DNA of 64,000 nt from Candidatus Latescibacterota bacterium (lineage in GTDB: Bacteria; JAAXHH01): assembly GCA_022823465.1 (NCBI GenBank), contig JAJEHX010000018.1:1-64000 (forward strand), read 5' to 3'. The stretch's first letter is position 1, and every line of letters starts with the position of its first letter. Positions 1-64,000 of this stretch are shown one piece after another. The notes beneath the pieces are model-generated. The model searched no databases, had not been told where the DNA came from, and was given only the letters and a program-made list of their open reading frames with translations. The position numbers and the translations under genes are program-made.

Positions 1-1
1 C

Positions 2-3000
2 CTGAAGGCCCTCAGCAACGACATCCACGCCAACCTGCAGGTCCCCCTGAAGGGCATCAAGGCCATCCTCAAGGAGCGCGGCCGGCCCGACGTGCCCATC
101 CGCGTGGCGGTCCGCACGGGCGACACGCCCACGAGCGAGCGCGCCGCCATGACGAAACACCCGCCCCACATCCTGGTGACGACCCCGGAAAGCCTCTACC
201 TGCTGCTCACGAGCGCGGGTGGGCGGCGGATCCTGCCGAACGTGCACACGCTCATCATTGACGAGATCCACGCGCTGGTCGGCAACAAGCGGGGTTCGCA
301 CCTGGCCCTTTCGGTGGAGCGACTGGAACGGATCACCTCCGAACCGCTGACCCGGATCGGCATATCGGCCACGCAGAAGCCCATCGACCGGATCGCCCAC
401 TTTCTCACCGGCGCCGCCTACGATAAGGGCAAGGGCTGCAAGATCCTCAACACCGGGCATCGGCGGAAACTCGAACTCAAGATCGAAGTGCCCCGTTCCC
501 CCCTCAGCGCCGTCATGTCCAACGAGATGTGGGAGGAAGTCTACGAGCGGCTCGAGGAACTCATCCTCCGTCACGAGACTACCCTGGTCTTCGTCACGAC
601 GCGGAGCATGTCGGAACGGCTGGCCCGCCACCTCAGCGAGCGGCTCGGCGCCGAAAACGTCACCTCCCATCACGGCAGCATGTCGAAGGAGCACCGCCAC
701 GACGCCGAGCAGCGGCTGAAGGCGGGCACGCTGAAGGCCCTCGTGGCCACGGCCTCCCTGGAACTGGGCATCGACATCGGGTCCGTCGATCTCGTGTGCC
801 AGATCGGATCACCCAAGGCCATCGCGACGCTGATCCAGCGAGTGGGCCGCTCCGGCCACACGATCACGGGCACGCCCCGGGGCCGGCTCTTCCCCCTCAC
901 GCGCGACGAACTGGTGGAGGCCGCCGCCATCATGGATTCGGTGCGGCGGGGCGAACTGGACCGGATCATCATCCCGGAACAGCCCCTCGACGTGCTGGCC
1001 CAGCAGATCATCGCGGAGGTTGCCAACCGCGATTATGCCGAGGACGACCTGTACCATCTCGTGCGGCGGGCCTATCCCTACCGCGATCTGTCCCGGGAGG
1101 AATTCGACGGCGTCGTGGCCATGCTGGCAGAGGGCTATACGCCTCGCCGTGGCCGCAAGCACGCCTACATCCAGCGGGACCTGGTGAACAGCCTGGTCAA
1201 GGGAAGGCGAGGGGCCCGGATCAACGCCCTGATGTCGGGCGGAACGATCCCGGACCAGTTCGACTACGACGTGATCATGGAGCCCACGGAGACTTTCATC
1301 GGCACGCTGAACGAGGACTTCGCCATCGAGAGCACGGCGGGGGACATCGTCCAGCTCGGCAACAACTCGTGGCGGATCCTGCGCGTGGAGAGGGGCAAGA
1401 TCCGCGTGGAGGACGCCCAGGGCATGCCACCGACCATGCCCTTCTGGTTCGGCGAGGCGCCGGGCAGAAGCGCGGAACTGTCCGCGTCCCTGTCGCGGCT
1501 GAGGCAAGAGGTGGCGAGCCGGATCGAACTGGGGAACGACAGACCGGAAGATGGCGACGGCTCGGAAGCCGCGAACGGTCGTGACGACAGGGCAGGATCG
1601 GAGAAGGGGCACGACGGCGAGAAGAAGCTCGACGCGCACTGGAAGCGGGAGGCCGAGGAGTGGCTGATGGAGTCCGCGGGCATTTCCCACGTGGCGGCGA
1701 CGCAGATCGCGGAGTACCTGGGCGCGACCAAGGCGGCCCTCGGCGTGATCCCCTCCCAGAAGGACCTGGTGGCGGAACGGTTCTTCGACGAGGCCGGCGA
1801 CATGCACCTCGTGCTCCACAGTCCGTTCGGGAGCCGGGTCAACCGGGCCTGGGGGCTGGCCCTGCGCAAGCGATTCTGCCGGACCTTCAACTTCGAACTG
1901 CAGGCCGCGGCGAACGAGGATTCCATCATCCTGTCTCTCGGCGCCACGCATAGCTTTCCCCTGGACGACGTGTTCCGCTACCTGAGCGCCAAATCCGTCC
2001 GCGAGGTCCTGGTCCAGGCCCTCCTCGACGCCCCCATGTTCGAGGTGCGCTGGCGCTGGAACGCGTCCACCGCCCTGGCCGTGCTGCGGCGCAGGGGCGG
2101 GGACCGGGTGCCGCCGCAGATACAGCGGTCCGTGGCCGAGGACCTGATCGCCCAGGTGTTTCCGGACCAGATCGCATGCCTGGAGAACATCGCCGGAGAT
2201 CGAGAGGTGCCGGACCATCCCCTGGTCAGTCAGACCATCGAGGACTGCCTGCACGAGGCCATGGACGTCGAGTCGCTGGAGTCGGTGCTGAAGACGATGA
2301 AGAATGGGGACATGAACGTGCACGCCCAGGACCTCCGCGAGCCTTCCCCCATGGCGGAGGAGATCCTCAACGCCCGTCCCTACGCCTTCCTGGACGACGC
2401 GCCTCTCGAGGAGCGCCGGACCAACGCCGTACGGAACCGCCGCTGGCTCGACCCCGCGGTCGCCGGCGATCTGGGGCGGCTGGACCCCGAGGCGATCCGG
2501 ACCGTCCGGAGCGACGCGTGGCCCGAGGTGAAAAGTCCCGACGAACTGCACGACGCCCTGGTGCTCGCGGGGTATGTCACGGAAGAAGAGGGGAAGAAGG
2601 GCGATCAGTTCGGGGGATGGACGGACTACTACGTCGCGCTGGAAGGCGACCGCCGGGCCGCCACACTCGTGACGGAAGGCGGGCGGCGCCTGTGGGTGCC
2701 GCTGGAACGGCGCATTCACTTCGAGTGCGTGCATCCCCGTGGACGGTTCGAACCGGAGAAGGCAATACCGGTCGACGTAAGAAGCAAACTGGAGAAGAGT
2801 TTTCAAACCGCCGCAGGCGAATCCGCGACGGAAGAGACCGCGCTGGTGGAACTGATACGAGGGAGACTGGAGACACTCGGACCAGTCACGGCGGCTGGCC
2901 TGGCCGAGTCCATCGACCTGCCCGTCGAACAGATCGATAAGGCCCTGATCACCCTGGAGAACGAAGGCTTCGTCTTCAGAGGGCAGTTTTCGCCGGGCGC

Positions 3001-4261
3001 GGACGCGCTGGAATGGTGCGAGCGCCGGCTCCTGGCGCGGATCCACCGCTTCACGATCACCAAGCTGCGCAGGGAGATCCAGCCCGTTTCACCCGCCGAC
3101 TTCATGCAATTCCTCTTCACCTGGCATCACCTGGCGCCCGACACCCGGTTGAAGGGAGCCGACTCCGTGACCGCCGTGCTGCGCATGCTGGAGGGCGTGG
3201 AGGCGCCGGCCGCGGCCTGGGAAAGCGAGATCCTGCCTTCCCGCGTCACCGACTATGACTACGCCTGGCTCGACAACCTCTGCCTATCGGGCAAATACGC
3301 GTGGGGCCGCCTGCGTCCCCACCGGGCCAACGGCGAGCAGGCCCGTTCGGTCGGTCCGATCCGGTCTACGCCCATCGCCATCGTGGACCGCATGAACCGC
3401 TCGCTCTGGGTGTCGCTGAGCGGCGCGACCGGCGATGAAGAACTTCCGCTGTCCACCTACGCGAAGGCGGTACTGGACCTGATGACCCGGCAGGGCGCGG
3501 TGTTTTTCGACGACATCGTGGCGCAATCCGGGATCCTGCGTACCCACGCCGAGGAAGCAGTGGCGGAGCTGGTCTCGGCGGGGCTGGTGACCTCCGACAG
3601 TTTCGCGGGTCTCCGGGCGCTGCTGGTCCCGACGCGTCACAAGGAGTCCCGGCGGGGACGGGAACGCAGGAATCCCTTCGACCTGTCGACGGCGGGACGC
3701 TGGGGGCTGACTTCCAGGACACCGGCGGAAGGCAACCCGGAGGAGGACCTCGAGGCCTATGCCCGCGTGGCCCTGGCCCGGTACGGCGTGGTCTTCAGGC
3801 GGCTCACGGAACGGGAGAACACCTCGCCGCCGTGGCGGGACCTCGTGCGCGTCCTGCGGCGCATGGAAGCCCGAGGGGAAATACGCGGCGGGCGGTTCGT
3901 CAACGGGGTCTGGGGCGAGCAGTACGCCTTGAGTGAGGCCGTTACACTGTTGCGAAGCATCCGACGGAAGGAGAAGCAGGGCACGCACGTGGCCATCAGC
4001 GCGGCCGACCCGTTGAACCTGATCGGGATCATCACGCCCGGACGGCGCATTCCCGGCATCACGAACAACCGGATCCTCTACCGGGACGGCGAACCCATCA
4101 TGATCATGGAAGGCGGCGAGATCCGGGAGGTGTCCCCGGTGTCCGCCGAAGAACAGTGGGCGCTGCGGCAGGAACTGGTCAAGCGGGAATTCCCCCCGAA
4201 GTTGAAGGCCTACCTGAGCGGCCGGCCTGCAAGACAGAAGGCCAGTATGACAAAGTCCTGA
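2..4261 (+). CDS. lhr: Lhr-like ATP-dependent helicase (5' truncated)
   Basis: Large superfamily 2 helicase of the Lhr family, which unwinds nucleic acid in DNA repair or RNA-linked processes. The reading frame is open from the window edge, so the N-terminus including Walker A lies upstream. About 1,419 residues are visible. Motif II DEIH is at nt 260-271, motif III SAT follows near nt 365, and motif [10 protein letters not shown] is at 836-859. The long C-terminal half matches the size of full-length Lhr rather than the short Lhr core. A hydrophilic, Asp/Glu/Gly-rich linker (nt about 1525-1640) separates the helicase core from the C-terminal part and looks like an insert. The family call is secure. 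The precise substrate cannot be read from the sequence. Confidence 0.93.
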
Positions 4262-4353
4262 TACGCTTGGGGATACGGATCGGCATGCGCTCAATCTTCT
4301 GACTTGGAATAGGCGCGCTTCAAAGGTTGAACAACCGGTCCCGGGCGGTAAGC

Positions 4354-4989: not shown

Positions 4990-5070
4990 GCACTGCTGTC
5001 CGTGTCGGACTTCCAAGACCGATCGGCGCGGTCAGCCCAGGGTTTACCTCCGAAATCGAAGGCGCCCCCT

Positions 5071-6222
5071 TCAGCTCAACGCGTTCAATGCTTCCATCAA
5101 CTGCCCGGGCGACGCCGTTCCCGTTACGCCCAGTTGCCGGACGGTGACGGACGCCGCGAGGTTGCCGACCAGACCGGCCTCGGCATGGCTCGCTCCCGCG
5201 GCGAGCGACGCGACGATGACCGCCGTGACGCTGTCTCCCGCCCCGACCGTATCCACCGGACCCGGCACGCGGATGCCGGGCATGTGGCGGCACCCCTCCC
5301 CGTCGATCAGGAGTAAGCCGTCGGCTCCCAAGGTTACGTAAACCGGCCGAGCCGGTCCGTCGCCGGCAACGCAACCGTTATCAACGCAACCGTTATCGAA
5401 GAGCACGCCGCCCCATCGTTCCGCCTCCTCCCGGTCAGAGTTCCCGTTCCGTTTCCCGGCTCCATCCCGACCGGAACGTGCTTCCCTGCCTTTGCCTTTT
5501 TCGTCGAACGCACTCTTCTCGACAGTGCCCTGGGTCTGTGCGGCCCTATAGATCTCGCCCCGGTTACCCTTGCGGATGACTTGGCGGAATTCGCCGATGC
5601 GTTCGCGCGAATCCGCCAGGATAACCAGGTCGGGATAAGCCCTGCCCAGGTCGCCGATCGCTTCCCTGACGCGGTCCGTGACCACCCCCGCATTGCGCCG
5701 TCCCACCTGGTCCAGGACGACCAGGCCATCCAGCGCCGGCGCCATGTCTCCCAGGTACGCGATGATCCGGTCTTCCAGCGCCCGGGGCAGAGGCGCGCGG
5801 TTCTGAATATCGATCCGATTCGATTCCTCTTCCCCCTCACCGCGAGGCACCATGGGCTTGATGTAGGTGGGCGTGAATAGTTCCTTTGACTCGAACAGGC
5901 CTTCCAGGCGCGCGCCCATCTTCGTCAAACCCTGCCGGAGTTCGTAGCCTTCCCCGTCGTCGCCCGTAACGCCGAGGACGTGCAACCTTCCGACACCCAG
6001 GGCATGCAGATTGGCCACGACGGTGCCGGCGGCGCCTGGCATGCACCGCCGGGCCACGACCTGGCGAGCGGTCAGCCCCGTCTCCAGGGACGGTTCGTCC
6101 AGCGCCGGGTCGAGAACCAGGTACTTGTCGAGGAAGAAATCGCCCATGACCATGACGGACAGGCCGGCGAAGCGGGACAGCAGGATTTCGAGGCGGTTCG
6201 GCGTCAGATAGAGCGGGGTCAT
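5071..6222 (-). CDS. PfkB-family carbohydrate kinase
   Basis: Ribokinase-fold sugar or nucleoside kinase, 383 residues. The N-terminal GDFFLDKY segment and a Gly-rich GAAGTVVANL stretch form the substrate lid. The C-terminal DTVGAGDS motif supplies the catalytic Asp and anion hole and is the family signature. The overall order resembles the kinase domain of HldE/RfaE (heptose-phosphate kinase), but the specificity is not resolvable. Unusually, a charged insert of roughly 60 residues rich in Gly, Arg, Glu and Asn follows the central domain, where relatives carry a short loop. Part of it is an exact 15-bp tandem duplication (5368-5397) giving DNGCVDNGCV. No other sugar-nucleotide gene is adjacent. 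It is divergent from the ABC operon. Confidence 0.85.
   Translation of the reverse strand: MTPLYLTPNRLEILLSRFAGLSVMVMGDFFLDKYLVLDPALDEPSLETGLTARQVVARRCMPGAAGTVVANLHALGVGRLHVLGVTGDDGEGYELRQGLTKMGARLEGLFESKELFTPTYIKPMVPRGEGEEESNRIDIQNRAPLPRALEDRIIAYLGDMAPALDGLVVLDQVGRRNAGVVTDRVREAIGDLGRAYPDLVILADSRERIGEFRQVIRKGNRGEIYRAAQTQGTVEKSAFDEKGKGREARSGRDGAGKRNGNSDREEAERWGGVLFDNGCVDNGCVAGDGPARPVYVTLGADGLLLIDGEGCRHMPGIRVPGPVDTVGAGDSVTAVIVASLAAGASHAEAGLVGNLAASVTVRQLGVTGTASPGQLMEALNALS
5368..5397. repeat. Exact 15-bp tandem duplication inside the PfkB kinase gene
   Basis: Unit AACGCAACCGTTATC occurs twice head to tail with no mismatch (5368-5382, 5383-5397). Because 15 is a multiple of three, it adds five residues without shifting the frame. 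Perfect identity suggests a recent event. Confidence 0.95.
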
Positions 6223-14094: not shown

Positions 14095-14178
14095 GGGAGA
14101 GTCGAGCTTCCACAAGAGCAAGTCAAGTTTCCACAAGAGCGAGTCGAACTTCTACGAGAGCAAGTCGAGCTTCCATCG
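14095..14178. repeat. Four 21-bp degenerate tandem repeats between GH32 and the PLP enzyme gene
   Basis: Units at 14095-14115, 14116-14136, 14137-14157 and 14158-14178 with approximate consensus GAGCAAGTCGAGCTTCCACAA. A degraded fifth unit follows. With a period of seven codons, one forward frame reads as Ser/Phe/His/Lys-rich heptads and stops in TAA just before the next gene. No ribosome site supports translation, so I treat it as noncoding. Confidence 0.9.
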
Positions 14179-16275: not shown

Positions 16276-16306
16276 AGAAGTCGAGCCCGCCGCGTTTGAA
16301 AACGCT

Positions 16307-16350
16307 TCAGCCGAACGCCTCAGCCTTACACATCAACCAAACGCTTCGGC
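16307..16350. repeat. Degenerate repeat of the PhyH 3' coding tail beyond its stop
   Basis: The last codons of the minus-strand PhyH gene (AEAFG-stop at 16333-16350) reappear 26 bp downstream of the gene at 16307-16324, again reading AEAFG-stop, with a third partial copy near 16295. Copies differ at several third positions. Confidence 0.6.
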
Positions 16351-19240: not shown

Positions 19241-19363
19241 CTTCTGCCCTCCTCGCAAGTTTAGATCTGTCGGCGATGACGCGTCGGAGTTAAAGCGTAG
19301 ACCGCTTGTAAAAAAGGCTCCCGGGGTCTGTCTGTCAATCCTTTCTTGGCCGTCGCTTTTGGC

Positions 19364-19392
19364 TTGAAACGCGCACCGCTCTTCGATATAAT
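19364..19392 (+). promoter_or_regulatory. Sigma-70-type promoter for the FGGY kinase gene
   Basis: TTGAAA at 19364-19369 and a perfect TATAAT at 19387-19392 with the optimal 17-bp spacer. Transcription would start near 19400 and leave a leader of about 130 nt containing a 26-bp tandem repeat. Confidence 0.6.
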
Positions 19393-19423
19393 ACCACCTG
19401 CAGCCCTTTTCCAACTCCTGTAT

Positions 19424-19475
19424 TCGCGACCGTAGTTCGATGGATATAGTCGCGGCCGTTGTTCGACGGATGTAT
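19424..19475. repeat. 26-bp imperfect tandem repeat in the FGGY kinase leader
   Basis: Units 19424-19449 and 19450-19475 agree at 21 of 26 positions (first begins TCGCGACCGTAGTTCGATGG). Located between the promoter and the start codon. Confidence 0.85.
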
Positions 19476-21111: not shown

Positions 21112-21143
21112 ACGGCAGACATCGGCCACGGCAGACATCGGCC
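21112..21143. repeat. Exact 16-bp tandem duplication upstream of transketolase
   Basis: ACGGCAGACATCGGCC occurs twice without mismatch (21112-21127, 21128-21143). It lies in the spacer before tkt. Confidence 0.95.
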
Positions 21144-24303: not shown

Positions 24304-24612
24304 GGTGGATGGTTCCTCGCGCGGCAACCGTGTTCGTCGGGGTAATTAGCTGATTCACATTCAGCCGTGTTCGTCGGGACACTTACTAACTGATACGCAT
24401 TTGGATGCATGAAAAAGGGGGGCAACTGGGGGAACTGGCCCGAGAGCAACACACCAAAATCCCGGGACCCTCTCCTCTGCCAGCCCCCCTCTCTGGTTGA
24501 AAAATTGCATCTATTAACTTGTGTTACCACTAATATCGTGAATAATACCCATAAATTCGATATAATTCACATTATTTTGACAATAAAGCGTGAACGAGTT
24601 AATTTCGATCTC
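24304..24612. other. Divergent intergenic region before fic, with repeats and AT-rich promoter zone
   Basis: About 309 bp without a gene. Near the GNAT start there is an imperfect 37-bp direct repeat (24328-24364 and 24365-24401, the first 14 bases identical, CCGTGTTCGTCGGG). The half next to fic is strikingly AT-rich. It contains a perfect TATAAT at 24561-24566 without a good -35, a TTGACA at 24577-24582 whose -10 would be poor and very close to the start codon, and a GTGAAT/ATTCAC inverted pair (24538-24543, 24565-24570). This base composition suggests foreign origin of the fic segment. Confidence 0.5.
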
Positions 24613-25533: not shown

Positions 25534-25560
25534 GTCTGGCGCCTTGAGCTTCTACTCCAG

Positions 25561-25649
25561 TCGCGCCAGGTCCACAGTACTCGCACCAGATCCATACTAC
25601 TCACGCCAGGCGCACCTGGTCCATAGTACTCGCGCCAGGTCCACACTAC
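25561..25649. repeat. Four-copy 20-bp tandem repeat between fic and a serine hydrolase gene
   Basis: Units at 25561-25580, 25581-25600, 25601-25629 (with a 9-bp internal insertion) and 25630-25649. Consensus TCGCGCCAGGTCCACAGTAC. Copies 1 and 4 differ at one base. The period is not a codon multiple and no spacers separate the units, so it is neither coding nor CRISPR. Confidence 0.92.
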
Positions 25650-29336: not shown

Positions 29337-29428
29337 ACGGTTGCCTCTCGTTCTGGATCATTCAGTTCTGTATCTTTCCAGTTGAATATACCAACACTGT
29401 GAGCATGGTGATGTTCCACTACGTTTTG

Positions 29429-29448
29429 TATTGTACAATTGTACAATA
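29429..29448. promoter_or_regulatory. 20-bp perfect palindrome, candidate operator
   Basis: TATTGTACAATTGTACAATA is an exact 20-bp palindrome made of two TTGTACAA half-palindromes. It lies in an AT-rich spot about 93 bp upstream of the Xaa-Pro peptidase start. The geometry suits a dimeric repressor such as a GntR- or TetR-type protein, but no regulator gene is adjacent. Confidence 0.55.
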
Positions 29449-29479
29449 AATTGCCTGCTCGAATGGATTTGCAACTTCC

Positions 29480-29521
29480 CGACTTGCTCGACTGGCTTCA
29501 CGACCTGCTCGACAGGCCTCT
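29480..29521. repeat. 21-bp imperfect tandem repeat upstream of the peptidase gene
   Basis: 29480-29500 and 29501-29521 match at 17 of 21 positions (second begins CGACCTGCTCGACAGGCC). A further diverged copy precedes at about 29454. Confidence 0.75.
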
Positions 29522-29550
29522 CGCTAATTTTGACATCGGCCTCGCGGGAC

Positions 29551-30525: not shown

Positions 30526-32154
30526 CTACTTCAGCTCGGCCACGGCTTCCTTGAACAGCTTTCCGCGCTCCTCGAAATTGGTGAACATGTCGTAACTGGC
30601 GCAGCCGGGCGACAGTACCACCACGTCTCCAATTTGTGCCAGCCCCGCGCTTTGCCGGACGGCCTCATCGAGCGTACCGGCGCGGGTGATGACTGTTGTG
30701 TCGGTCGCCCCGCTCTTCCTGAGCGCGGCCTCGATCGCGGCGGCCGTCGCACCGATGAGGACAACGGCCCGGGCGCGCCGGACGATTTCCGACGCCATGC
30801 TGTCGAAGGACATCCCTTTATCGTACCCGCCCGCGATCAGCACGACCGGACGATCGAAGGCACGCAGCGCGGTGACCGTAGACGCCGGCGTGGTGCAGGC
30901 CGAATCGTTGTAATAGCCCACGCGGTCGATAACGGCTACCTCTTCCAGCCGGTGCTCCACGCCGCGGAACGCCTCGACCGTGGAGCGGATGACTGGCGCG
31001 GGGATCCCGCCCAGGCACGCGGCCGTCACGGCGGCGAGCAGGTTGGCCCGGTTGTGCGGACCCGGGAGCTGGAGGCTGTCCACGGGGCACACGACGCGTT
31101 CGTCCGCGGGAGCGCCTTCTCCTGCCGAGCCGCGTTCGACCGATGGATCGCCACCGTCCGCTGAATCGCGTTCACGAGGCGCATCGTGTTCACCCGCCGG
31201 ATCGCCGCCCAGCACGGGCTCGCCTTCTCCTACCGTATCACGTTCTCCCGAAGCGTCGCGAAAGACCACTTCTCCGTCATGCAGGTAACATCCGGTCTCG
31301 ACCGGACCCTCCATGCTGAACCACGCCACCCGCCCCGGACAAATAGGCACCCACGCGCGCAGCCGCTCATCATCGGCATTCAACACGGTCACGTCGCCCG
31401 ACGCCTGGTAACGCACGATGTGCTGCTTGGCCTGCTCGTAGGCGTCGAAGGTCCCATGCCAGTCCAGGTGATTGGGCGACAGGTTCGTCACCACGGCCAG
31501 CCCGGGGCTTCGCCGGATCCAGGCCAGCCGGTGGAGCTGGAAGCTGGACAGTTCCAATATCACGGGGCTGCCGTCGCCCGGCGCATCCGCGGCTTCGGTC
31601 ACCTCCACAGATTTGGACAGACTGTCGGCGCCCGGCGCTACCCTCGCTTCAGCCACTTCCCCGGCTTCGGCCGCCTCGCTCCGGCTGTCGAGTTCGTTGA
31701 GCACGGCCCGGCCGATGTTCCCGCCTACCAGCGTCTCCGGATCAATCGCCCGGTACAGTTCGCCGATGAGGCGGGTGGTCGTTGTCTTGCCGTTGCTGCC
31801 CGTGACGCCGATGATCGGCCGGCGGCGGGTCTCGAAGACCAGGTTCGTTTCGGTGGTCAGCGGAACGCCCCGGTCCCGCGCCAGACGGAGGAACGGACTG
31901 TCCTCCCGGACGGCGGGACCTACCACCACGAGGTCCGCGCCAGTGACGTCCTCCTCCCGGTGCTCCCCGAGCACGTAGCGGACCGGCCAGCGGGCGAGGG
32001 CGTCGATGGACTTCCGAAGCGCTTCAGCGGGCTTCAGGTCGGTGACGGTGACGTCCGCTCCCCGAGCGGCGAAATACCGCGCCGAAGCGACCCCGCCGGA
32101 GAACACGCCGAGGCCCAGCACAGTAACCCGTTTGCCGGTTAAATCCCTTGACAC
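30526..32154 (-). CDS. murD: UDP-N-acetylmuramoylalanine--D-glutamate ligase with two low-complexity inserts
   Basis: Mur ligase adding D-Glu to UDP-MurNAc-L-Ala in peptidoglycan synthesis. The GTG at 32154 (VSRDLTGKRVTVLG) is the preferred start because it fits the family N-terminus; an in-frame TTG at 32226 would overlap the upstream gene. Features: VLGLGVFSGGVASARYF, ATP loop GVTGSNGKTTTTRLI, GGNIGRAVL, SPNHLDWHG and the C-terminal HRLEEV and NDSACTTPAST motifs. The protein is about 542 residues against roughly 440 normally. The excess is two inserts: one before ILELSSFQL and one between the central and C-terminal domains, the latter a 9 x 6-residue repeat. Core motifs are intact, so it is probably functional. 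Confidence 0.94.
   Translation of the reverse strand: MSRDLTGKRVTVLGLGVFSGGVASARYFAARGADVTVTDLKPAEALRKSIDALARWPVRYVLGEHREEDVTGADLVVVGPAVREDSPFLRLARDRGVPLTTETNLVFETRRRPIIGVTGSNGKTTTTRLIGELYRAIDPETLVGGNIGRAVLNELDSRSEAAEAGEVAEARVAPGADSLSKSVEVTEAADAPGDGSPVILELSSFQLHRLAWIRRSPGLAVVTNLSPNHLDWHGTFDAYEQAKQHIVRYQASGDVTVLNADDERLRAWVPICPGRVAWFSMEGPVETGCYLHDGEVVFRDASGERDTVGEGEPVLGGDPAGEHDAPRERDSADGGDPSVERGSAGEGAPADERVVCPVDSLQLPGPHNRANLLAAVTAACLGGIPAPVIRSTVEAFRGVEHRLEEVAVIDRVGYYNDSACTTPASTVTALRAFDRPVVLIAGGYDKGMSFDSMASEIVRRARAVVLIGATAAAIEAALRKSGATDTTVITRAGTLDEAVRQSAGLAQIGDVVVLSPGCASYDMFTNFEERGKLFKEAVAELK
31096..31257. repeat. Nine 18-bp tandem repeats encoding a hexapeptide array within murD
   Basis: Nine consecutive 18-bp units with no length variation, in register with the murD codons. 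On the coding (minus) strand each gives six residues: DASGER, DTVGEG, EPVLGG, DPAGEH, DAPRER, DSADGG, DPSVER, GSAGEG, APADER. The rough consensus is Asp-x-x-x-Glu-Arg/Gly. Nucleotide divergence between units is substantial, so the array is old or rapidly diverging. Confidence 0.95.
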
Positions 32155-38205: not shown

Positions 38206-38909
38206 ACTACCTTGCTCACCTGTACTTCGCCGAAGACACGCCCGAGTCTCGCGTGGGGAACCTGATGGTGGATTTCGTCCGGGGACCCGTGGACGGTCAG
38301 CCGTACAATGGCGCGGTCATGCGGGGCATGCGGAGTCACGTGGCCGTGGATCGCTACACCGACGGCCACGAAGTGGTCCGCGAGAGCAAGGCGCTCATAA
38401 GCGGCACCCGACGACGATTCGCCGGGATCATCGTGGATATCTGCTACGACCATTTCCTTGCAAGGCACTGGTCGGACTTTTCGGACGAGTCTCTCGCCGG
38501 TTTCATCGACCGGACCTACAGTTCCCTGAGTGCCTACCGGGGCGATATGCCGCCGGTCCTCTCACGGGTACTGAATCACATGGTGAAGCACGACTGGCTG
38601 GGCGGCTACCGGGAACTGACGGGCATCGGGCGGGCGCTGGACGGCCTGTCCATGCGCATCCGGCGGCCCAACACGCTGGCGGGATCGGTGGAGGAACTCG
38701 AGGCCAACTACGGAGCGATGGAAGGACAGTTCCTGCGGTTTTTCCCGGACCTGATCAGACACATGGAGACCGGACCAGGCAGCATGGACGAAGGGGCGCG
38801 GGTACAACCGACCGGCAGTACGGACAAAGAGGCGCGGGTCGGGCGTGAAAGCCGCGAGGCACGGGACGACCGCCGTGATAGACCACTGGAAAGGCAACGG
38901 GCGCGATGA
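38202..38909 (+). CDS. acpH: Acyl carrier protein phosphodiesterase (AcpH/DUF479) with repetitive tail
   Basis: Hydrolase removing 4'-phosphopantetheine from holo-ACP, 235 residues. Family start [21 protein letters not shown], then [14 protein letters not shown] and [11 protein letters not shown] metal-binding segments. The standard family length is about 195 residues. The final 40 residues are a charged, low-complexity extension containing a duplicated 26-bp core (GSMDEGARV / GSTDKEARV). The extension reaches the ATGA overlap with the next gene, so it may have arisen by duplication that moved the stop codon. The function assignment rests on the N-terminal part. Confidence 0.85.
38778..38839. 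repeat. 26-bp direct repeat (36-bp period) in the acpH 3' extension
   Basis: 38778-38803 and 38814-38839 agree at 22 of 26 positions and are in frame, giving two GS-x-D-x-x-ARV peptides. Confidence 0.8.
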
Positions 38910-40045
38910 ACAACCACTACGACGTCATCGTCGTCGGTATCGGCGCCATGGGTTCGGCGACGTGCTACCACCTGGCCGGCCGGGGGGCGAAGGTCTTAGG
39001 TCTGGAACGCTTCGACCTGCCCCACGCCCAGGGCAGTTCCCACGGATATTCCCGCCACACGAAGACGGCGGTGTACGTGGATACGCCCTACGAGCCCTTC
39101 ATCGGGCGCTCCTTCGAGCTCTGGCGGCTCCTCGAGGGCGAGACAGGCCAGCAGATCCTGGTGACGACCGGCTACCTGCGCATGGCCGATACCGGGTCGT
39201 GGGATCATTTGCGGGGCAAGGTAACGCACGAGGTGCTGACCGCCGACGAACTGGCCTACCGGTATCCGCAGTTCACGCTGACGTCCGACTACCACGGACT
39301 GTACGATCCGAACGGCGGGCTGCTCCGTCCTGAACTGGGCATCGCGAGTCACATCATACAGGCGTCGCGGCGCGGCGCCGAGATACGCGGACGCGAGGCC
39401 GTGACCGGGTGGAAGGAAACCGGCCAATGCGTGGAGATGGAGACCGACCGGGGCCGTTACAGCGCGGACCAGGTCGTCTTCTGCAGCGGTTCGTGGACCG
39501 CCCCGCTGATCGCGGACCTCGGCATATCCATGACCGTTACGCGGCAGCCCCTGGCCTGGGTGTGGCCCGCGCGGAACGCGGCGTCCTTCGACGTCGGAGC
39601 GCTGCCCATCTGGCAGATCCCCGCGCCCGAAATGGACGGCGAGTACTACGGATTCCCCATGATGCCCGACCATCCCGGGTTCAAGCTGGCGCTCCACAGG
39701 TACGGCGAGGCGTCCGATCCCGACAACCTGGACCGGAGCGCCCGTCCCGAAGACGAGAAGGAGGTGCGGGCGTGCCTGCGCCGGTACATTCCCGACGCCG
39801 ACGGACCGCTCACGGCCATGCGGATCTGCATGTACACCCGAACGGCGGATGATCATCCCGTGATCGACCGGCATCCGAACCACGAGCGGGTGACGGTGGG
39901 CTGCGGCTTCAGCGGGACCGGCTTCAAGTTCTCCTGCGTCTTCGGCGAATGGCTGGCCGAAACGGCCCTCGGGCAGCAGACGACGATCGAAAACGACACC
40001 TTCCGTTTCGAACGACTGCTCGCGTCCGAAAATACAACCGACTAA
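38906..40045 (+). CDS. Monomeric sarcosine oxidase / N-methyltryptophan oxidase-like flavoenzyme
   Basis: DAO-family FAD oxidase, 379 residues. Dinucleotide motif VIVVGIGAMGSATCYHLA at the N-terminus. HGYSRHTKTA lies near the flavin, and RICMYTRTADDHPVID contains the Cys that binds FAD covalently in monomeric sarcosine oxidases. A C-terminal GCGFSGTGFKF motif closes the FAD site. It oxidises N-methyl amino acids such as sarcosine, which would fit use of methylated osmolytes. It starts by ATGA overlap with acpH. A PhyH gene follows 106 bp downstream. Confidence 0.9.
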   Translation: MNNHYDVIVVGIGAMGSATCYHLAGRGAKVLGLERFDLPHAQGSSHGYSRHTKTAVYVDTPYEPFIGRSFELWRLLEGETGQQILVTTGYLRMADTGSWDHLRGKVTHEVLTADELAYRYPQFTLTSDYHGLYDPNGGLLRPELGIASHIIQASRRGAEIRGREAVTGWKETGQCVEMETDRGRYSADQVVFCSGSWTAPLIADLGISMTVTRQPLAWVWPARNAASFDVGALPIWQIPAPEMDGEYYGFPMMPDHPGFKLALHRYGEASDPDNLDRSARPEDEKEVRACLRRYIPDADGPLTAMRICMYTRTADDHPVIDRHPNHERVTVGCGFSGTGFKFSCVFGEWLAETALGQQTTIENDTFRFERLLASENTTD

Positions 40046-40047
40046 GT

Positions 40048-40081
40048 ATACAGCGCGCCTCACAAATACAGCGCGCCTCAC
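40048..40081. repeat. 16-bp exact direct repeat (18-bp period) after the sarcosine oxidase-like gene
   Basis: ATACAGCGCGCCTCAC at 40048-40063 and 40066-40081, separated by AA. Located just past the stop codon. Confidence 0.93.
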
Positions 40082-40151
40082 GATCTGAATACTGACGGTG
40101 TGATTCAGCACATACAACGACCGGAACCCTGACAGGACAGGAGCGACCATC

Positions 40152-40943
40152 ATGAATACCCATATCACCGCGGACCAGTGGACGGTATTCGAACGGCAGG
40201 GTTACCTGCGTCTCGGCACCGTGATGGAGCCGGGTGAGCTCGTGCGGCTCCAAGAGCGTATCGACGACATCATGCTGGGCAGGGCCGATATCGACTACAG
40301 CCGGGTCATGATGCAGCTCGACCGCGACCCGGAGCGTGGGGGAGACAAGCCCGGACCGCAGAGCAGGGGCCACAAGGGCGCCACGCTGAGCTACCGGAAG
40401 ATCCAGGACCTGGAACTGGACCCCGTGTATCTCGCCTTCATGCAGAAACCGGTCTTCGAGGCGATCTGCGAACGGGTCTACGGTCCCGACACACCGGTGG
40501 CCTGCTTCCGAGCAATGTTCATGAACAAGCCCAGCGGGGAAGGTACGCCGCTCGTGTGGCACCAGGACCGGTGGACCGACTTGGACCGCGACCCCCTCGT
40601 CACGTTGTGGACGGCGCTGGACGACGCCGTCGAGGCAAACGGCTGCGTGAAGATCATCCCGGGGTCGCACCGCCGGCTCATCAACCCGAGCCATGGCTCC
40701 GGGTTCCTGACCGACGAGCAGGCGGCGGCCGTGGTGGCCGAAAACGAACCCGTCAACATGGAAGTCGCGTCCGGCGAAACTGTCCTGATGCACAACTGGA
40801 TGCTGCACAGTTCCGGGACGAACAGTACCGATACGGCGAGACGCGCCTTCAGCGTGTGCTTCATGGACGCGGCGACCCGGTCCCGGGCGGGGCACACCTT
40901 CCCCGTCATTTTCGGCGAGGGGTCGCTGAGTCCGGCGCTGTAA
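40152..40943 (+). CDS. Phytanoyl-CoA dioxygenase (PhyH) family protein
   Basis: Third PhyH paralogue, 263 residues. HxD ligand pair in VWHQDRWTDL at about residue 137, distal His in WMLHSSGTNSTDTARRAF with the 2-oxoglutarate Arg at the end. EANGCVKIIPGSH is the conserved strand between them. It is on the same strand as the sarcosine oxidase-like gene. PhyH enzymes and N-methyl amino acid oxidases could act on the same class of compound, but this is inference from proximity. Confidence 0.9.
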   Translation: MNTHITADQWTVFERQGYLRLGTVMEPGELVRLQERIDDIMLGRADIDYSRVMMQLDRDPERGGDKPGPQSRGHKGATLSYRKIQDLELDPVYLAFMQKPVFEAICERVYGPDTPVACFRAMFMNKPSGEGTPLVWHQDRWTDLDRDPLVTLWTALDDAVEANGCVKIIPGSHRRLINPSHGSGFLTDEQAAAVVAENEPVNMEVASGETVLMHNWMLHSSGTNSTDTARRAFSVCFMDAATRSRAGHTFPVIFGEGSLSPAL

Positions 40944-42662: not shown

Positions 42663-42787
42663 ATGGCAAAATTGACGATAAACGAGACTGAATCTCGAAA
42701 CGGATTTAGGTGGCCGGAGAAACTGGAGCAGCTGGAGATACCGGAGCAGCCGTCAAGGCCAGAGAAGATCCAACGGAATCACATTCC

Positions 42788-45775: not shown

Positions 45776-45928
45776 CTAGTCGGTCCGCTTCGGCATGCAA
45801 CCGTGCCCCGTGCTCCTTGGCCGGTCCGCGTCAATACAGCACGTCCGTACCCGCGCCGCTGGTAAGTCTGTGTCGATCTGGCCCTGTAATCATGCCTTCT
45901 AGTCGGTCCGCGTCGGCTTGCGCCCGTG
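45776..45928. repeat. 30-bp direct repeat duplicating the 3' coding end of the 45899-47251 gene
   Basis: 45899-45928 is the end of that gene and encodes HGRKPTRTD-stop. 45776-45805, 123 bp further downstream, matches at 26 of 30 positions and would encode HGCMPKRTD-stop. Confidence 0.85.
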
Positions 45929-49327: not shown

Positions 49328-50160
49328 TTTTCCACCTCCTCCGCCACCAGCGCTTCCATTTCGTGCTCGAAGCCGCCGGTCTCCACCGGGCAGTGCATGC
49401 CGCATTCCTTGGGCGCGTTCTTCTCCCACCACCAGCGCCCCGCCCGCGAGTCCTCGCCGGGCTTCGTGACCCGGGTGCACGGCATGCAGCCGATACTCGT
49501 AAAGCCTTTTTCATACAGCGGGTGCTTCGGGACGTCGTAGAGCTCTATGTAGTCCCAGACCTCGTCCTCGGTCCAGTCCGCCAGGGGGCTGATCTTCGCC
49601 AGTCCGCCGTGGTCGTGGTCGATCTCGATCTTGCGGATGTTCGCCCGGCTGGCCCACTGGTCGCGCCGAAGCCCGGTGAACAACCCGTCCAGCCCCTCGA
49701 GGGCCCGCCGGATCGGCTCCACCTTGCGCACGTTGCAGCACTTGAACCGCGATTCCACGGACTTGTAGAAGAGGTTCACGCCGTGGGCGCCCACCATGTT
49801 CTCCACCTGGAGCAGGTCGGGGAAGTAAACCTGGATATCGATGTCGTAGTGGTCCCGGACCTGGTCGATGAAGTCGTAGGTCTCCTGGTGCAGCCGGCCC
49901 GTATCCACCGTGAACACGTGGATATTGGGATCGATCTGCCAGGCCATGTCCAGCAGGACCATCCCCTCCGCCTGGAAGCTCGTACACAGTCCGGCGCGTC
50001 GGCCCCAGCGGTCCAGGGCCCATTCGATCACGGCCTCGGGGGATTCTCCGTCGAACTCAATGGCCAGTTGTCCGGCTTCGAATTCATCCAGAAAGTCGCG
50101 GTCCAGGCGTTCCAGGTGTTCCGGGCGGTCCGGACGGTCCAGGCGTTCCATGGCGGTCAT
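49324..50160 (-). CDS. cysH: Assimilatory adenylyl-sulfate (APS) reductase, CysH family
   Basis: Thioredoxin-dependent reductase making sulfite from activated sulfate, 278 residues. The catalytic cysteine is in KECGMHC (Cys253). The [4Fe-4S] ligands are Cys141-Cys142 (FKCCNVRK) and Cys225-x-x-Cys228 (GCMPCTR). This CC...CxxC set is diagnostic of APS-specific enzymes and is absent from PAPS reductases such as that of E. coli. The first 20 residues are a Leu/Asp/Arg-rich repeat (ERLDRP type). The start at 50160 is chosen because it forms an ATGA overlap with sulfite reductase. A farther upstream open frame is antisense-like and not conserved. Confidence 0.93.
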   Translation of the reverse strand: MTAMERLDRPDRPEHLERLDRDFLDEFEAGQLAIEFDGESPEAVIEWALDRWGRRAGLCTSFQAEGMVLLDMAWQIDPNIHVFTVDTGRLHQETYDFIDQVRDHYDIDIQVYFPDLLQVENMVGAHGVNLFYKSVESRFKCCNVRKVEPIRRALEGLDGLFTGLRRDQWASRANIRKIEIDHDHGGLAKISPLADWTEDEVWDYIELYDVPKHPLYEKGFTSIGCMPCTRVTKPGEDSRAGRWWWEKNAPKECGMHCPVETGGFEHEMEALVAEEVEK

Positions 50161-52226: not shown

Positions 52227-53648
52227 TCAACTGTCTTTTCCGGATCCTTCACCCGATTCTTCTCCCGATCCTTCGTTTCGCTTGTTCCGCATCCACAGCC
52301 AGTACGCCGGGATGCCCAACGAGGTGATGGTCAGCCCGATCAGGGTATTCCCGGGGTCGCTGATGACGATGGACACGAAGAAGATCACACCGATGAGCAC
52401 GAAGATCGCGGGTGTGACGGGATACCCGAGGGTGCGGTAGGGCCGTGGCACGTCGGGACGGGTGCGCCGGAAGATGAACACGCTGAAGGTAGTTGTGATG
52501 TAGAAAAGCCAGAGGGAGCCGGTCCGCGCCGCAATGATGGCGCCCCAGTCGCCGAGGAACACGATATTGAGGATGCCCACAACGGCCAGGAACACGACGG
52601 CGTTGGCCGGCGTACGGTAGCGCGGGTGGACGCGCGCGACCCATGAGAAGAACATCTTCTCGCGGGCCATGGCGAAGAAGACGCGCGGTCCGGTCAGCAT
52701 GCCGGCGTTCACGGTGCCGAAGGTGGAGATCATGGCGGTCGCGGCGATGAAACCCGCTCCGATCGGTCCGACGAGCGATTGCATGGTCTCGGATGCGACG
52801 CGCTCGCTCTGGGCGACGCCCGTGTTGGAGAGCACCAGCAGGTAGGCGCTGTTCACGAGCAGGTAGACGACGGTGGTGATGGCGAGACCCAGTATGATGG
52901 ACAGGGGCACCCAGCGTCTCGGATTCTTGATCTCTTCCGCCACGTAGGTCGACCCGTCCCACCCGTCGTAGGCGCCGAAGGACGCCATCATGCCGAGGCT
53001 GACCATGCTGAGAAACCCGATCGTGAGGGTGGAATCGGAAGGCCAGACCGGTTGGAAATTACTCGTGTCGGGGGTGATGCCGAAGGCCAGGGCGACCATG
53101 AGGAGCAACCCGCCCACCTTGAGGAAGGAAGACAGGTTCTGGACGAGACCGCCGAACCGCACGCCCAGGTAATTGATGAAGGCCAGGATGATCAGGGCGA
53201 TTATCGCCACGCCCCGCATGGCCCAGTCCGGGTATGGACTGAACTGGCTGACGAAATAACCCAGGTAGGTGGAGAATACGATGGATATGGCCGCCAGGTC
53301 GCAGGGACGTATGACCAGGAGCGAGGTCCACCCGAAGAGAAAACTCCACAGTCGCCCGTAGGCTTCCCTCAGGAATACGTACACCCCGCCTGAACGCGGC
53401 ATGAGGCCGCCCAGTTCGGCGAATGTCACCGCGCCGCAGAAGGCCATGAAGGCGCAGATGACCCAGACCAGGAGGTTCCAGCCGGAAGTACCCACGTAAC
53501 CGGCCACGATGGCGGGACCCGCGAAGATGCCGGAACCGATGATCCCACCGATAATCACGGTCGTCGCCGTGACCGGTCCCAGGTCCCGCTTGAGCTCGGT
53601 TTCCTCACCGAATGAATCGGATCGGGCGTCTTCCCGCACGTCGCTCAT
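52227..53648 (-). CDS. APC-superfamily amino acid permease
   Basis: Integral membrane transporter of 473 residues with about 12 helices, LAT/SLC7-like. The first helix carries the unwound GGIIGSGIFAGPA motif used for amino-acid carboxylate binding. FAELGGLMPRSGGVYVFLREAYG in the helix 2-3 region and ASFGAYDGWDGSTYVAEEIKNPRR at helix 6 are typical. The last 15 residues are a Gly/Ser/Glu repeat from a 3 x 12-bp array. Predicted substrate is an amino acid, exchanged or imported. No neighbour points to a particular one. Confidence 0.9.
   Translation of the reverse strand: MSDVREDARSDSFGEETELKRDLGPVTATTVIIGGIIGSGIFAGPAIVAGYVGTSGWNLLVWVICAFMAFCGAVTFAELGGLMPRSGGVYVFLREAYGRLWSFLFGWTSLLVIRPCDLAAISIVFSTYLGYFVSQFSPYPDWAMRGVAIIALIILAFINYLGVRFGGLVQNLSSFLKVGGLLLMVALAFGITPDTSNFQPVWPSDSTLTIGFLSMVSLGMMASFGAYDGWDGSTYVAEEIKNPRRWVPLSIILGLAITTVVYLLVNSAYLLVLSNTGVAQSERVASETMQSLVGPIGAGFIAATAMISTFGTVNAGMLTGPRVFFAMAREKMFFSWVARVHPRYRTPANAVVFLAVVGILNIVFLGDWGAIIAARTGSLWLFYITTTFSVFIFRRTRPDVPRPYRTLGYPVTPAIFVLIGVIFFVSIVISDPGNTLIGLTITSLGIPAYWLWMRNKRNEGSGEESGEGSGKDS
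52240..52275. repeat. Three 12-bp tandem repeats at the permease 3' end
   Basis: 52240-52251, 52252-52263 and 52264-52275 (CCGGATCCTTCA-like). In frame, extending the C-terminus with Gly-Ser-Gly-Glu units. Confidence 0.85.
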
Positions 53649-53754: not shown

Positions 53755-53846
53755 CGCGCGCGCCGGCCTCAGACAGATACCGCGCGCAGGCCTTAGAAAG
53801 TTACGCATGCAGGTTTTAGTAAGTTACTGCGCGCGGCGCTCAGCTG
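53755..53846. repeat. Degenerate repeats of about 24 bp between permease and amidohydrolase
   Basis: Units at 53755-53779, 53780-53803 and 53804-53826, with a partial fourth reaching the amidohydrolase stop codon. Each contains a GC-rich head and an (A)GGCCT(T/C)AGA-like tail. Lengths are 25, 24 and 23 bp, so they have drifted. Confidence 0.75.
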
Positions 53847-58797: not shown

Positions 58798-58875
58798 AGA
58801 AACTACAAGCGGCATCTATTCAAAATCTATGAGGACTGTGAGCGTGGTGTCCCTACTGCAAAGAAGGTACGAGTT

Positions 58876-59244: not shown

Positions 59245-59294
59245 TTGATGACGTTCTGCTCGGTTCATTGGAAGCTAATTGTGGAGAACAAACG

Positions 59295-60956: not shown

Positions 60957-61791
60957 ACCTCTCGAAGTATACTCAAGATTCTTCGAGACGTTCGCGCCGG
61001 TTTTTGCCGACCTCATAGACCGACTACCGTCCCTTGCTCAAGATCAGCTTGATCCTTCGATCCCGGGTAACCTTGTTCGTAACGATGATGTCCGTACGGC
61101 GTTACGCTACCTGACGGCACCACCCATTTCCGAGGACGACTTGAAGACGTTGGCGGGGACAACACTGTCGCCAACCAATTTGAGAACTGATGCGGAACGG
61201 GCTCGACGCGTCCGAGACGTTATCTTTCAGATCCTGGATTCGCATCGCTTCCCGTGGATCTTGGAGAACCGAAAGCCTACTGAGCACGAACGCATGCAGG
61301 CCGTTGTTGCGTCAGCCGTGCTAGTGGCGGCGCAGAAGGTCGCGACCTCGCGTCGGTCGGACGCCCGAAAGGACCAGGAAGAAGCCGTCAAGAACCTGCT
61401 TTGGGACATCGGATTCACCGAAGTCAGACCTCGTGATATACCCATCATTGATCTCGCGCCACATCCGCGAGAGTTCTGCAGCGAATCAAAGCTTGGCGGC
61501 ACTCGCGCCGACATCCTCGTCCGTCTCTACGACCGTCGGTTAATGCCTATCGAATGCAAAGCCTCCAACAGCGCCGTGAATTCTTTCAAGCGTGTCAACC
61601 ACGAGGCACTAGGGAAAGCACGAAGCTGGATTACCGGTTTTGGGAAACGCCACGTCGTACCTGTGGCAGTTATAGGAGGCGTATTTAACGCTGCCAATCT
61701 TGACTTGGCTCAGGAGGAAGGGCTGTCTGTCATCTGGAGCCATCGCCTTGAGGATCTAGCTGAATTCGTTGAGTCCAGCAAAGGGGTTTAG
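60868..61791 (+). CDS. XamI family type II restriction endonuclease
   Basis: 307 residues, resembling the XamI endonucleases (GTCGAC, the SalI site). Start ATG 60868 lies within the end of the methylase gene. The N-terminus WTTAELASDVEEAKAVFRDQRL and the central DAERARRVRDVIFQIL are family-like. The PD-(D/E)xK core is DILVRLYDRRLMPIECKASNS, with Asp and Glu-x-Lys spaced as expected. Specificity is inferred from family only. Long overlap with the methylase suggests linked expression with methylase first, the usual protective order. Confidence 0.82.
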   Translation: MTYPRHWTTAELASDVEEAKAVFRDQRLREPLEVYSRFFETFAPVFADLIDRLPSLAQDQLDPSIPGNLVRNDDVRTALRYLTAPPISEDDLKTLAGTTLSPTNLRTDAERARRVRDVIFQILDSHRFPWILENRKPTEHERMQAVVASAVLVAAQKVATSRRSDARKDQEEAVKNLLWDIGFTEVRPRDIPIIDLAPHPREFCSESKLGGTRADILVRLYDRRLMPIECKASNSAVNSFKRVNHEALGKARSWITGFGKRHVVPVAVIGGVFNAANLDLAQEEGLSVIWSHRLEDLAEFVESSKGV

Positions 61792-61918
61792 CAATACCGG
61801 TGGCAGACCGCGGCGTAGATGAATACCCCTTGATTCGTAATCGATAGCCGGTTTAAGGTCTGAAGTGCGAGCCTGCATGAATTCCCTCCGTTTCCATGTG
61901 TCATCTCTACAGTGTTTC

Positions 61919-61947
61919 TTGACATATTTCTACTGACTAGTCATATT
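61919..61947 (+). promoter_or_regulatory. Promoter of the Phd-VapC operon
   Basis: Perfect TTGACA at 61919-61924, 17-bp spacer, CATATT at 61942-61947. The -10 is exactly the loop of the inverted repeat at 61932-61957. Confidence 0.55.
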
Positions 61948-61957
61948 ACTAGTCAGT
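61932..61957. promoter_or_regulatory. 10-bp inverted repeat overlapping the -10: candidate antitoxin operator
   Basis: ACTGACTAGT (61932-61941) and ACTAGTCAGT (61948-61957) are perfect inverted arms around a 6-bp centre. Phd-type antitoxins usually repress their own promoter through such sites, so binding here would block RNA polymerase. Confidence 0.6.
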
Positions 61958-62051
61958 TACTTGTTCATGTGTGAATATAACATCCACCAGGGCGGGTTAT
62001 TATACTGGCAGATCATTACGGACGGACCATCCCAATCGAGGCGGCCGCATT

Positions 62052-62312
62052 ATGCGTAAGGAATGGCAGGTCCAGGAAGCGAAGGCGAAGTTCAGCGAAT
62101 TGCTCGAGACCAGCCGGACCGCGGGCCCGCAGACCGTGACCAAGCGAGGCGCGAAAGCGGCGGTCCTGGTTTCCGTCGAAGAGTGGGAACGGATGAAGCA
62201 GTCGGCAAGATCCGATCTGAAGGACCTGCTGCTTTCTCCCGAGGCGCGCACGGAGTCCCTGACGCCTATGCGTGAGAAACGCCGGTCGCGCAGCGCGGCA
62301 AGCCGGGAATAG
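62052..62312 (+). CDS. Phd/YefM-type antitoxin
   Basis: 86 residues from ATG 62052. The N-terminal Phd fold is clear: EWQVQEAKAKFSELLETS, PQTVTKRGAKAAVLVSVEEWERM. The C-terminal tail (about 35 residues, Arg/Lys-rich) would wrap the toxin. Three bases separate its stop from the VapC start, typical of these operons. DNA binding by the N-terminal dimer to the inverted repeat at 61932-61957 would autoregulate the operon. Confidence 0.92.
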   Translation: MRKEWQVQEAKAKFSELLETSRTAGPQTVTKRGAKAAVLVSVEEWERMKQSARSDLKDLLLSPEARTESLTPMREKRRSRSAASRE

Positions 62313-62315
62313 CCT

Positions 62316-62753
62316 ATGTATCTCCTGGATACCGAAGTCGTATCGGAACTTCGAAGGAACCAGCCTCACCCGGGTGCGCTGGCGTGGCTTTCGGACGTTG
62401 CCCCGGACCGGTTGTACCTTTCCGCCGTGACCGTGGGCGAAATCCAGACAGGCGTCGAGATCGCTCGTGCAAAAGACGCGCCCGGGGCTGCCGAGCTGGA
62501 AGCCTGGTTGGGCAAGTTGATGGATACCCAGCGCGTACTGCCCATGGATTCGGCCGTCTTCCAGGTATGGGGCAGGCTCCTGTACCGCCGGTGGGATGTT
62601 CGTATGACAGACGCCATGATCGCGGCTACGGCCGTAGTGCACAGGCTGACCGTCGTGACCCCGCACCCCGGGGATTTCGACCGGCTCGGTGTAAAAACGC
62701 TCAATCCGTTTGAGGAAGGATCGGACTTACAAGGGAGAACCCGCCATGTATGA
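62316..62753 (+). CDS. vapC: VapC-family toxin (PIN-domain ribonuclease)
   Basis: PIN-domain protein, 145 residues. Acidic residues for metal binding: Asp5 and Glu in YLLDTEVVSELRR, Glu in SAVTVGEIQTGVE, Asp in MTDAMIAATA and Asp in TPHPGDFDRLG. FitB/VapC-like toxins cleave tRNA or rRNA. Coupled to the Phd antitoxin upstream. Its 3' end overlaps the start of the enolase-superfamily gene by seven bases, which is odd for a mobile module and implies insertion directly against a resident gene, or a slightly extended toxin C-terminus. Confidence 0.9.
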   Translation: MYLLDTEVVSELRRNQPHPGALAWLSDVAPDRLYLSAVTVGEIQTGVEIARAKDAPGAAELEAWLGKLMDTQRVLPMDSAVFQVWGRLLYRRWDVRMTDAMIAATAVVHRLTVVTPHPGDFDRLGVKTLNPFEEGSDLQGRTRHV

Positions 62754-64000
62754 CGTGGACGCCATCGCCGCCTTCGACCGCGAAAACGTGGCGGACATCA
62801 AGGCCCGGCAGGGCCATATCAACGAAAGCGGCAGGGCGGCAGGGCTGAAGATCACCGATGTGCGCACCTGGCGGGTACTGATGCCCTGGCGGGGCACCAA
62901 GCGCTGGGACGGGTCCGCGGAAGGGTTCTCCTTCGCCGAGTTCGAGACCGACCAGGGGCTGGTCGGCGTGGCCGAGGGCGTCTCCGGCGAATCGGAGGAA
63001 CTGCGCGAAAACGTAGTGGGAAAGAACCCCTTCGACCCCGAAATACGGGGCCTGCTTGGCCTGGCCTACTGGGATTTCGCCGGCAAGATCGCCGGCAAGC
63101 CCCTTTACCGATACCTGCGCGACGTCTTCGATCTCGATACGCCCGTGCTCACGAAGATCCCCATGGCGGCCTACACCTGGTACAGGTTTCCCGACGTCAA
63201 CGGCGAAAACGAAGTGACCTTCGACACGTATCCGCAACACGTGAAGTCGCTCATGGAGGACGAGAGTTTCCGCATCATCAAGCTGTCCATGTGCGATTTC
63301 GAGCCCGTGCGCTACATCGAACTGATCCACAATATCCGCGACCTGGTCGGCAGGGACGTGGATATCCGCGTCGATCCCCACGCGTCCTGGAGCGAGAGCG
63401 AGGCGCTGCGGTTCATGCAAGGGGTCGACGACTGCCGGATCGAATGGATCGAAGAACCGGTGGGCGGCCGGTTCGAAAACATCTTCCGCGCCGGGCACCG
63501 CCTACGGCTCATGAGCAGCATCCCTATTTCCTCCCATGTCTGGCTGCCGCCGCTCAAGCGGGACGCGGCGCCTCGTCCCTACGGCGCTTACGTTTCGGGC
63601 CGATACGGAGACGAGACCCTGGACCAGCCGCTCGATCTCGAGGTCATGGGCCGCCACGTGCCCGCCGACGTGTCCGCGCCGGACGCCTACGCGGGTCCGC
63701 TGGCCCTCAAGCGCTATTACGACACCGCACGGTTCATGGGCATGGAACTCGGCATGCACAGCGCCTATGAACTGGGGCCGGGCACCGCCATACGCCTCCA
63801 CGCCGCAGCCTTCGCCTTTCCCTACACCATCGCCTATCACATCGTACACGGCAACGGCACCATGCCCATGTCGCTCCACGGCCTCGACGCCCACTACAAC
63901 CAGTGGGTCGGCGACGTGATCAAGGGCGGCAAGATGCCCTACGAGGACGGATGCCTGCGGGTACCCGAGGGACCCGGGCTGGGGGTCGAGCTCGACCCGG
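62747..64000 (+). CDS. Mandelate racemase / enolase-superfamily protein (3' truncated)
   Basis: At least 418 residues, still open at the window end. ATG 62747 with AAGGGAGAA upstream. The N-terminal capping domain runs to about residue 140. In the barrel the expected Lys-x-Lys appears as KLS (IIKLSMCDFEP), so the second lysine is Ser. RVDPHASWSE gives the first metal ligand and WIEEPVGG the second. The absence of the second lysine suggests an atypical acid/base arrangement or a dehydratase subfamily with a different catalytic set. Substrate is probably a sugar acid. It starts inside the end of vapC. Confidence 0.85.

What the first reader, a model, noticed from the sequence alone, without database searches (positions are those of the whole stretch)
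1..64000. Recurrent short tandem duplications in spacers, gene ends and enzyme linkers
At least 16 separate loci show tandem or near-tandem repeats of 9-37 bp: 5368, 14095, 16307, 19424, 21112, 24328, 25561, 29480, 31096, 38778, 40048, 42716, 44840, 45776, 52240, 53755. Intergenic ones have any period (16, 18, 20, 24, 26, 37 bp). Those inside genes have periods divisible by three and make Gly/Ser/Asp/Glu-rich inserts or C-terminal tails. Units are unrelated between loci, so this is not a dispersed repeat family. Exact copies (5368, 21112, 40048) imply continuing activity. I infer an unusual local duplication process whose products survive wherever they are tolerated.
Basis: partly seen in the sequence, partly recalled or inferred. 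Interest (0 to 1): 0.72.

Follow-up and report, generated by a model that had tools for sequence, protein, structure and literature searches.

The report
Short tandem duplications by replication slippage
A genus of uncultured Latescibacterota keeps gaining short head-to-tail DNA duplications in gene spacers and flexible protein linkers, three to four times more than other bacteria sampled, and the junctions point to ordinary copying slippage rather than a new machine.

Summary
Fifteen of the 16 named loci carry a tandem or near-tandem repeat beyond dinucleotide shuffles; 45776 does not (p=0.16). The feature is genome-wide. Intergenic arrays (TRF score >=50) number 81.5 per 100 kb of spacer in this genome, 68 in nine congeners, 21 in two sister genera, 18 in unrelated bacteria and 19 in GC-matched ones (4.3x, p=3e-10). 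A count independent of gene calls (periods not divisible by three) gives 3.0-3.5x over controls.

Most arrays are private to one species or shared with one or two others, and copy number differs between species (2, 4 and 3 copies at 40048). Median copy divergence in spacers (12%) equals spacer divergence from the nearest relative. Exact duplications carry 3 or more bases of junction microhomology in 21 of 37 cases, against 6% for random duplications. Ku is absent; MutS, MutL, RecJ and ExoVII are present. This fits slipped-strand mispairing at short direct repeats, filtered by selection: inside genes nearly all periods are multiples of three.

Exact duplications are only about twofold enriched, so slow loss probably contributes. 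The genus lacks SbcCD, which its sister genera have, but other genomes without it show no excess. Known mechanism, unusually dense in one genus.

The parts
5367..5397 (.). exact 15-bp tandem duplication, in frame, in ORF 5071-6222 (-); absent in 3 of 3 congeners with the site
14100..14175 (.). 21-bp unit x3.6, copies about 80% alike, in the spacer after the GH32 gene; congeners have 17-29 bp of spacer here
16301..16338 (.). 13-bp unit, about 3 diverged copies, spacer
   Evidence: p=0.01
19421..19474 (.). 26-bp near-tandem repeat, spacer upstream of the FGGY kinase; G010 has its own exact 21-bp array nearby
21112..21143 (.). exact 16-bp tandem duplication, spacer before transketolase; absent in 5 of 5 congeners
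24325..24378 (.). 17-bp repeat at lag 37, spacer before the Fic gene
25554..25649 (.). compound 20/29/49-bp array, spacer before the beta-lactamase-family gene; absent in 5 of 5 congeners
29475..29523 (.). 21-bp duplication, spacer; absent in 10 of 10 congeners
31095..31173 (.). 36-bp-lag repeat inside ORF 30526-32121 (-); the region varies in length among congeners
38748..38839 (.). 20-bp and 36-bp-lag repeats in the C-terminal tail of the ACP phosphodiesterase-family gene, after the Pfam domain (residues 1-184); the TRF array is absent in 10 of 10 congeners
40048..40081 (.). 18-bp-period repeat (exact 16-mers), spacer; 2 copies here, 4 in G009, 3 in G001, none in the rest
42713..42750 (.). 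18-bp repeat just upstream of cysS; found only in G009 besides this genome
44839..44878 (.). 15-bp unit x2.7 near the end of the epimerase gene (Gln-Gly-Gly-Ser type insert); most congeners are 30 bp shorter here, G001 is longer
50098..50158 (.).
52235..52274 (.). 12-bp unit x3.3 at the end of the amino-acid permease gene; present in 5 of 5 congeners
53757..53804 (.). 24-bp duplication, spacer; absent in 4 of 4 congeners

Best explanation
These are independent, short, local tandem duplications made by slipped-strand mispairing (or an equivalent microhomology-mediated misalignment) between chance short direct repeats during DNA synthesis. Each event copies roughly 9-40 bp next to itself; later slippage changes copy number, and point mutation blurs the copies. 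Selection removes products that shift frame or disturb folded domains, so survivors sit in spacers (any period) and in linkers, tails and gene ends (multiples of three). Shown here: excess over chance, genus-wide excess over other bacteria, species-specific presence, copy-number change and junction microhomology. Inferred: the biochemical step, and the cause of the genus-level excess (some mix of higher birth rate and slow loss).
For: Shuffle tests. Density 81.5 per 100 kb spacer here and 68 in congeners against 21 in sister genera and 18-19 in controls; gene-call-free check 3.0-3.5x. Of 22 intergenic arrays with at least two orthologous sites, 10 are private and 11 shared with one or two species. 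Copy number 2/4/3 at 40048 in G000/G009/G001. Junction microhomology of 3 or more bases in 21 of 37 exact intergenic duplications against 5.9% expected. Median copy identity 0.88 in spacers against 12.4% spacer divergence from G009. No Ku, so no NHEJ route. In-frame filter in genes.
Against: In two closer species pairs (about 4.5% divergence, 44 kb aligned) only about 7 of 26 indels of 6 bp or more were tandem-like, so tandem duplication is not the dominant recent indel in that stretch. Exact duplications are only 2.0-2.8x enriched, with p from 0.016 to 0.06. Units show no hairpin signal. The slippage step itself was not observed.
Confidence: 0.72

Rival explanations
1. The excess is mainly retention: birth is ordinary, but arrays are lost slowly because this lineage tolerates longer spacers or removes repeats poorly, for example through weak selection in a host-associated population.
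For: All arrays are about 4.3x enriched but exact ones only about 2-2.6x; copies in arrays are on average as diverged as the nearest sister species.
Against: Exact duplications are still about twofold enriched, and copy number changes between related species. Spacer fraction (12.6%) is ordinary.
Confidence: 0.35
2. Loss of the SbcCD hairpin nuclease in this genus raises the birth or lowers the deletion of short repeats.
For: No SbcD in any of 12 genus genomes and no full-length SbcC, while G012, G013, G014 and G015 have them; array density drops in G012/G013.
Against: G019, G020 and G024, without a clear SbcC, have 1 array in 220 kb (G020 does have a weak SbcD-like match). Units are not hairpin-prone. 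It is a single phylogenetic contrast.
Confidence: 0.1
3. Assembly artefact: duplicated short stretches introduced by metagenome assemblers.
For: All Latescibacterota genomes here are MAGs.
Against: Most arrays have diverged copies, in-gene arrays keep frame, units are far shorter than reads, and some arrays recur at the same site in independently assembled genomes.
Confidence: 0.04
4. The arrays are functional elements: regulatory repeats, phase-variable switches or a dispersed repeat family.
For: Some lie upstream of genes, and at least one coding array (52240) is conserved in all congeners with the site.
Against: Units are unrelated, most positions are not conserved, orthologous genes do without them, and there is no hairpin signal.
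Confidence: 0.05

Closest known systems
Bacterial minisatellites / VNTRs made by slipped-strand mispairing
   Same: Head-to-tail copies of 9-40 bp, microhomology at junctions, copy-number change between related genomes, in-frame bias in genes
   Different: Mostly 2-4 diverged copies at very many unrelated loci, at about four times the control density across one genus
Close direct repeats of prokaryotic genomes (survey PMC4060949)
   Same: Over-represented in intergenic regions of many prokaryotes, normal in genes
   Different: That survey counts exact short words genome-wide and does not treat this genus, lineage-specific birth or age
Short tandem repeat families of cyanobacteria (STRR type)
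   Same: Intergenic short tandem arrays
   Different: Those, from general knowledge, reuse a few units across the genome; here units differ at every locus. The cyanobacterial loci sampled reach 31.9 arrays per 100 kb of spacer

Membership tests
Slippage-born minisatellites / VNTRs | head-to-tail copies beyond chance | tested here: met
Slippage-born minisatellites / VNTRs | copy number differs between related genomes | tested here: met
   2/4/3 copies at 40048; species-private arrays
Slippage-born minisatellites / VNTRs | junctions at short direct repeats (microhomology) | tested here: met
   21 of 37 against 5.9% expected
Slippage-born minisatellites / VNTRs | copy number varies within one population | not testable with these tools
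   no reads or strains available
Dispersed tandem repeat family (STRR type) | same unit at many loci | tested here: not met
   consensus units differ from locus to locus (by inspection)
NHEJ-made duplications | Ku present | tested here: not met
   no Ku in any genus genome searched
Mismatch-repair mutator | loss of MutS or MutL | tested here: not met
   MutS found in all genus genomes searched, MutL in six of six searched

The most novel reading that the evidence does not exclude
The genus has a heritable change in repeat metabolism, possibly linked to its loss of SbcCD, that makes short tandem duplications a major source of spacer growth and of new disordered linkers, including the linker in MutS just before its clamp-binding-like motif.
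Probability: 0.15. Interest if true: 0.55.

Novelty: new member of a known kind. Interest (0 to 1): 0.36.

Why it matters
It gives a comparative system of 12 related species in which the birth, expansion, decay and in-frame filtering of short tandem duplications can be followed at orthologous sites, and it shows how bacterial protein linkers change length between species. It also marks a genus-specific loss of SbcCD whose link to repeat load can be tested by comparative genomics.

Tried and rejected
Chance: rejected by shuffles, except at 45776. GC bias: rejected with GC-matched controls. Gene-call bias: checked with periods not divisible by three. NHEJ: Ku absent. Mismatch-repair, ExoVII or RecJ loss: all present. 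Hairpin-prone units: no signal. RecJ length differences: no internal gaps above the print threshold in the alignment, so only end extensions. Indel polarisation in two close pairs: too few events to settle how dominant tandem duplication is. Literature searches found no report on tandem repeats in this genus.

Full report
Source. The window is part of a 3.86-Mb, 55-contig genome. Its nearest relatives in the named collection are MAGs labelled Candidatus Latescibacterota or Gemmatimonadetes. Eleven same-genus genomes are held, with gene order conserved across the window at about 85-89% nucleotide identity to it. A host-associated (sponge or coral) origin is suggested by the isolate labels and is not confirmed here.

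Is it there? TRF and a best-lag test against shuffles confirm 15 of 16 loci; 45776 fails (p=0.16). One strong extra array lies at 50098-50158. The window is typical of its genome, 17.2 against 16.3 arrays per 100 kb.

Is it more than other genomes have? Intergenic arrays at TRF score 50 or more: 85 in 104 kb of spacer here (81.5 per 100 kb), 77 in 113 kb in nine congeners (68.0), 6 in 28 kb in two sister genera (21.2), 49 in 273 kb in controls (18.0) and 18 in 95 kb in controls of 57-69% GC (19.0). The ratio to GC-matched controls is 4.3 (p=2.6e-10) for this genome and 3.6 (p=7e-8) for congeners. Because my gene calls are simple, I repeated the count with periods not divisible by three over all sequence: 3.0-3.5x over controls, and 3.1-3.4x over sister genera with p about 0.01-0.02. 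Densities differ among congeners, and several are thinly sampled. Cyanobacterial loci reach 31.9. Density in coding sequence is 7.2 per 100 kb here, close to GC-matched controls (6.1), so the excess in this genome is in spacers; in congeners coding density is 15.1.

How old are they? Spacer copies are a median 88% identical, and spacers differ by 12.4% between this genome and its nearest relative G009. At orthologous sites, 10 of 22 intergenic arrays were private and 11 occurred in one or two other species. At 21112 five congeners lack the duplication, and at 14100 the spacer is 17-29 bp in congeners against 152 bp between the same anchors here. At 40048 this genome has 2 copies, G009 has 4, G001 has 3 and the rest have none. 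So arrays arise, grow and vanish on the time scale of species splits.

How are they made? For exact duplications, the match beyond one full period measures homology at the junction. It is 3 bases or more in 21 of 37 intergenic cases in the genus; simulated random duplications in the same spacers give 5.9%. Controls show the same tendency (8 of 22), and the difference from the genus is not significant (p=0.18). Ku is absent, while MutS, MutL, ExoVII and RecJ are present. Units do not fold better than their shuffles. That is the signature of slipped mispairing at short direct repeats. Mismatch repair handles loops above a few bases poorly (discussed in PMC4060949), so its presence does not forbid this.

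Selection. Within genes, 39 of 40 indel-free arrays have periods divisible by three. They sit in tails or linkers, for example after the Pfam domain at 38748. Outside the window, the MutS linker before a conserved YQLSLF stretch, which resembles a clamp-binding motif (my reading), runs from 36 to 81 residues of Gly/Asp/Ala among eight congeners, with tandem arrays in its DNA in several of them. MutS is thus both a repair protein of the lineage and a substrate of the process.

Why is the genus rich? Exact (young) duplications are only about 2-2.8x above controls, with p from 0.016 to 0.06, less than all arrays. Retention therefore probably contributes. In two closer pairs, tandem-like changes were about 7 of 26 indels of 6 bp or more, a small sample that does not show tandem duplication to be dominant. 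The genus has no SbcD and no full-length SbcC, both present in its sister genera. That is a lead, weakened by G019, G020 and G024, which lack a clear SbcC and have almost no arrays.

Comparison with the known. Slipped-strand mispairing, VNTRs and intergenic excess of close direct repeats are established (PMC4060949). What is added is a genus-level excess with lineage-by-lineage history. I found no paper on it in the library searched. Verdict: a real and general feature of this genus, known mechanism, moderate interest.

Noticed in passing
G000-G011 (whole genomes): SbcD missing from all 12 genus genomes and no full-length SbcC, though both occur in G012-G015 of the same family or order.
   Followed up: partly
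L233, L234, L236, L237, L239, L240, L241 (MutS genes): MutS has a Gly/Asp/Ala-rich linker of 36-81 residues, very variable between congeners, just before a conserved YQLSLF motif.
   Followed up: partly
window 29428-29447: Palindromic ATTGTACAATTGTACAA sits in this fast-changing spacer and is kept in G006, G007, G009 and G011 while the rest differs; operator-like.
   Followed up: no
window 19340-19400: Stretch CTGTCAATCCTTTCTTGGCC...GCTTTTGGCTTGAAACGCG...TATAAT is strongly conserved among congeners upstream of the FGGY kinase, with promoter-like TTGAAA-N17-TATAAT.
   Followed up: no
spacer orthologous to window 40020-40160: A 35-bp block (TTCGGCGTAAATTGGAAAGCGACCAGGCCCGGAAT) is in G003, G008 and G010 but not in their closer relatives G006 and G002; patchy, suggests recombination between species or repeated loss.
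   Followed up: no
L147:1-220 and L184:15287-15450: Collagen-like Gly-X-Y coding repeats at a contig end and inside another contig of the same genome.
   Followed up: no
intergenic arrays of G000: Differences between copies are transition-rich (ts/tv 2.1) compared with 1.3 in congeners' arrays and about 1.0-1.6 in ortholog spacer comparisons.
   Followed up: partly
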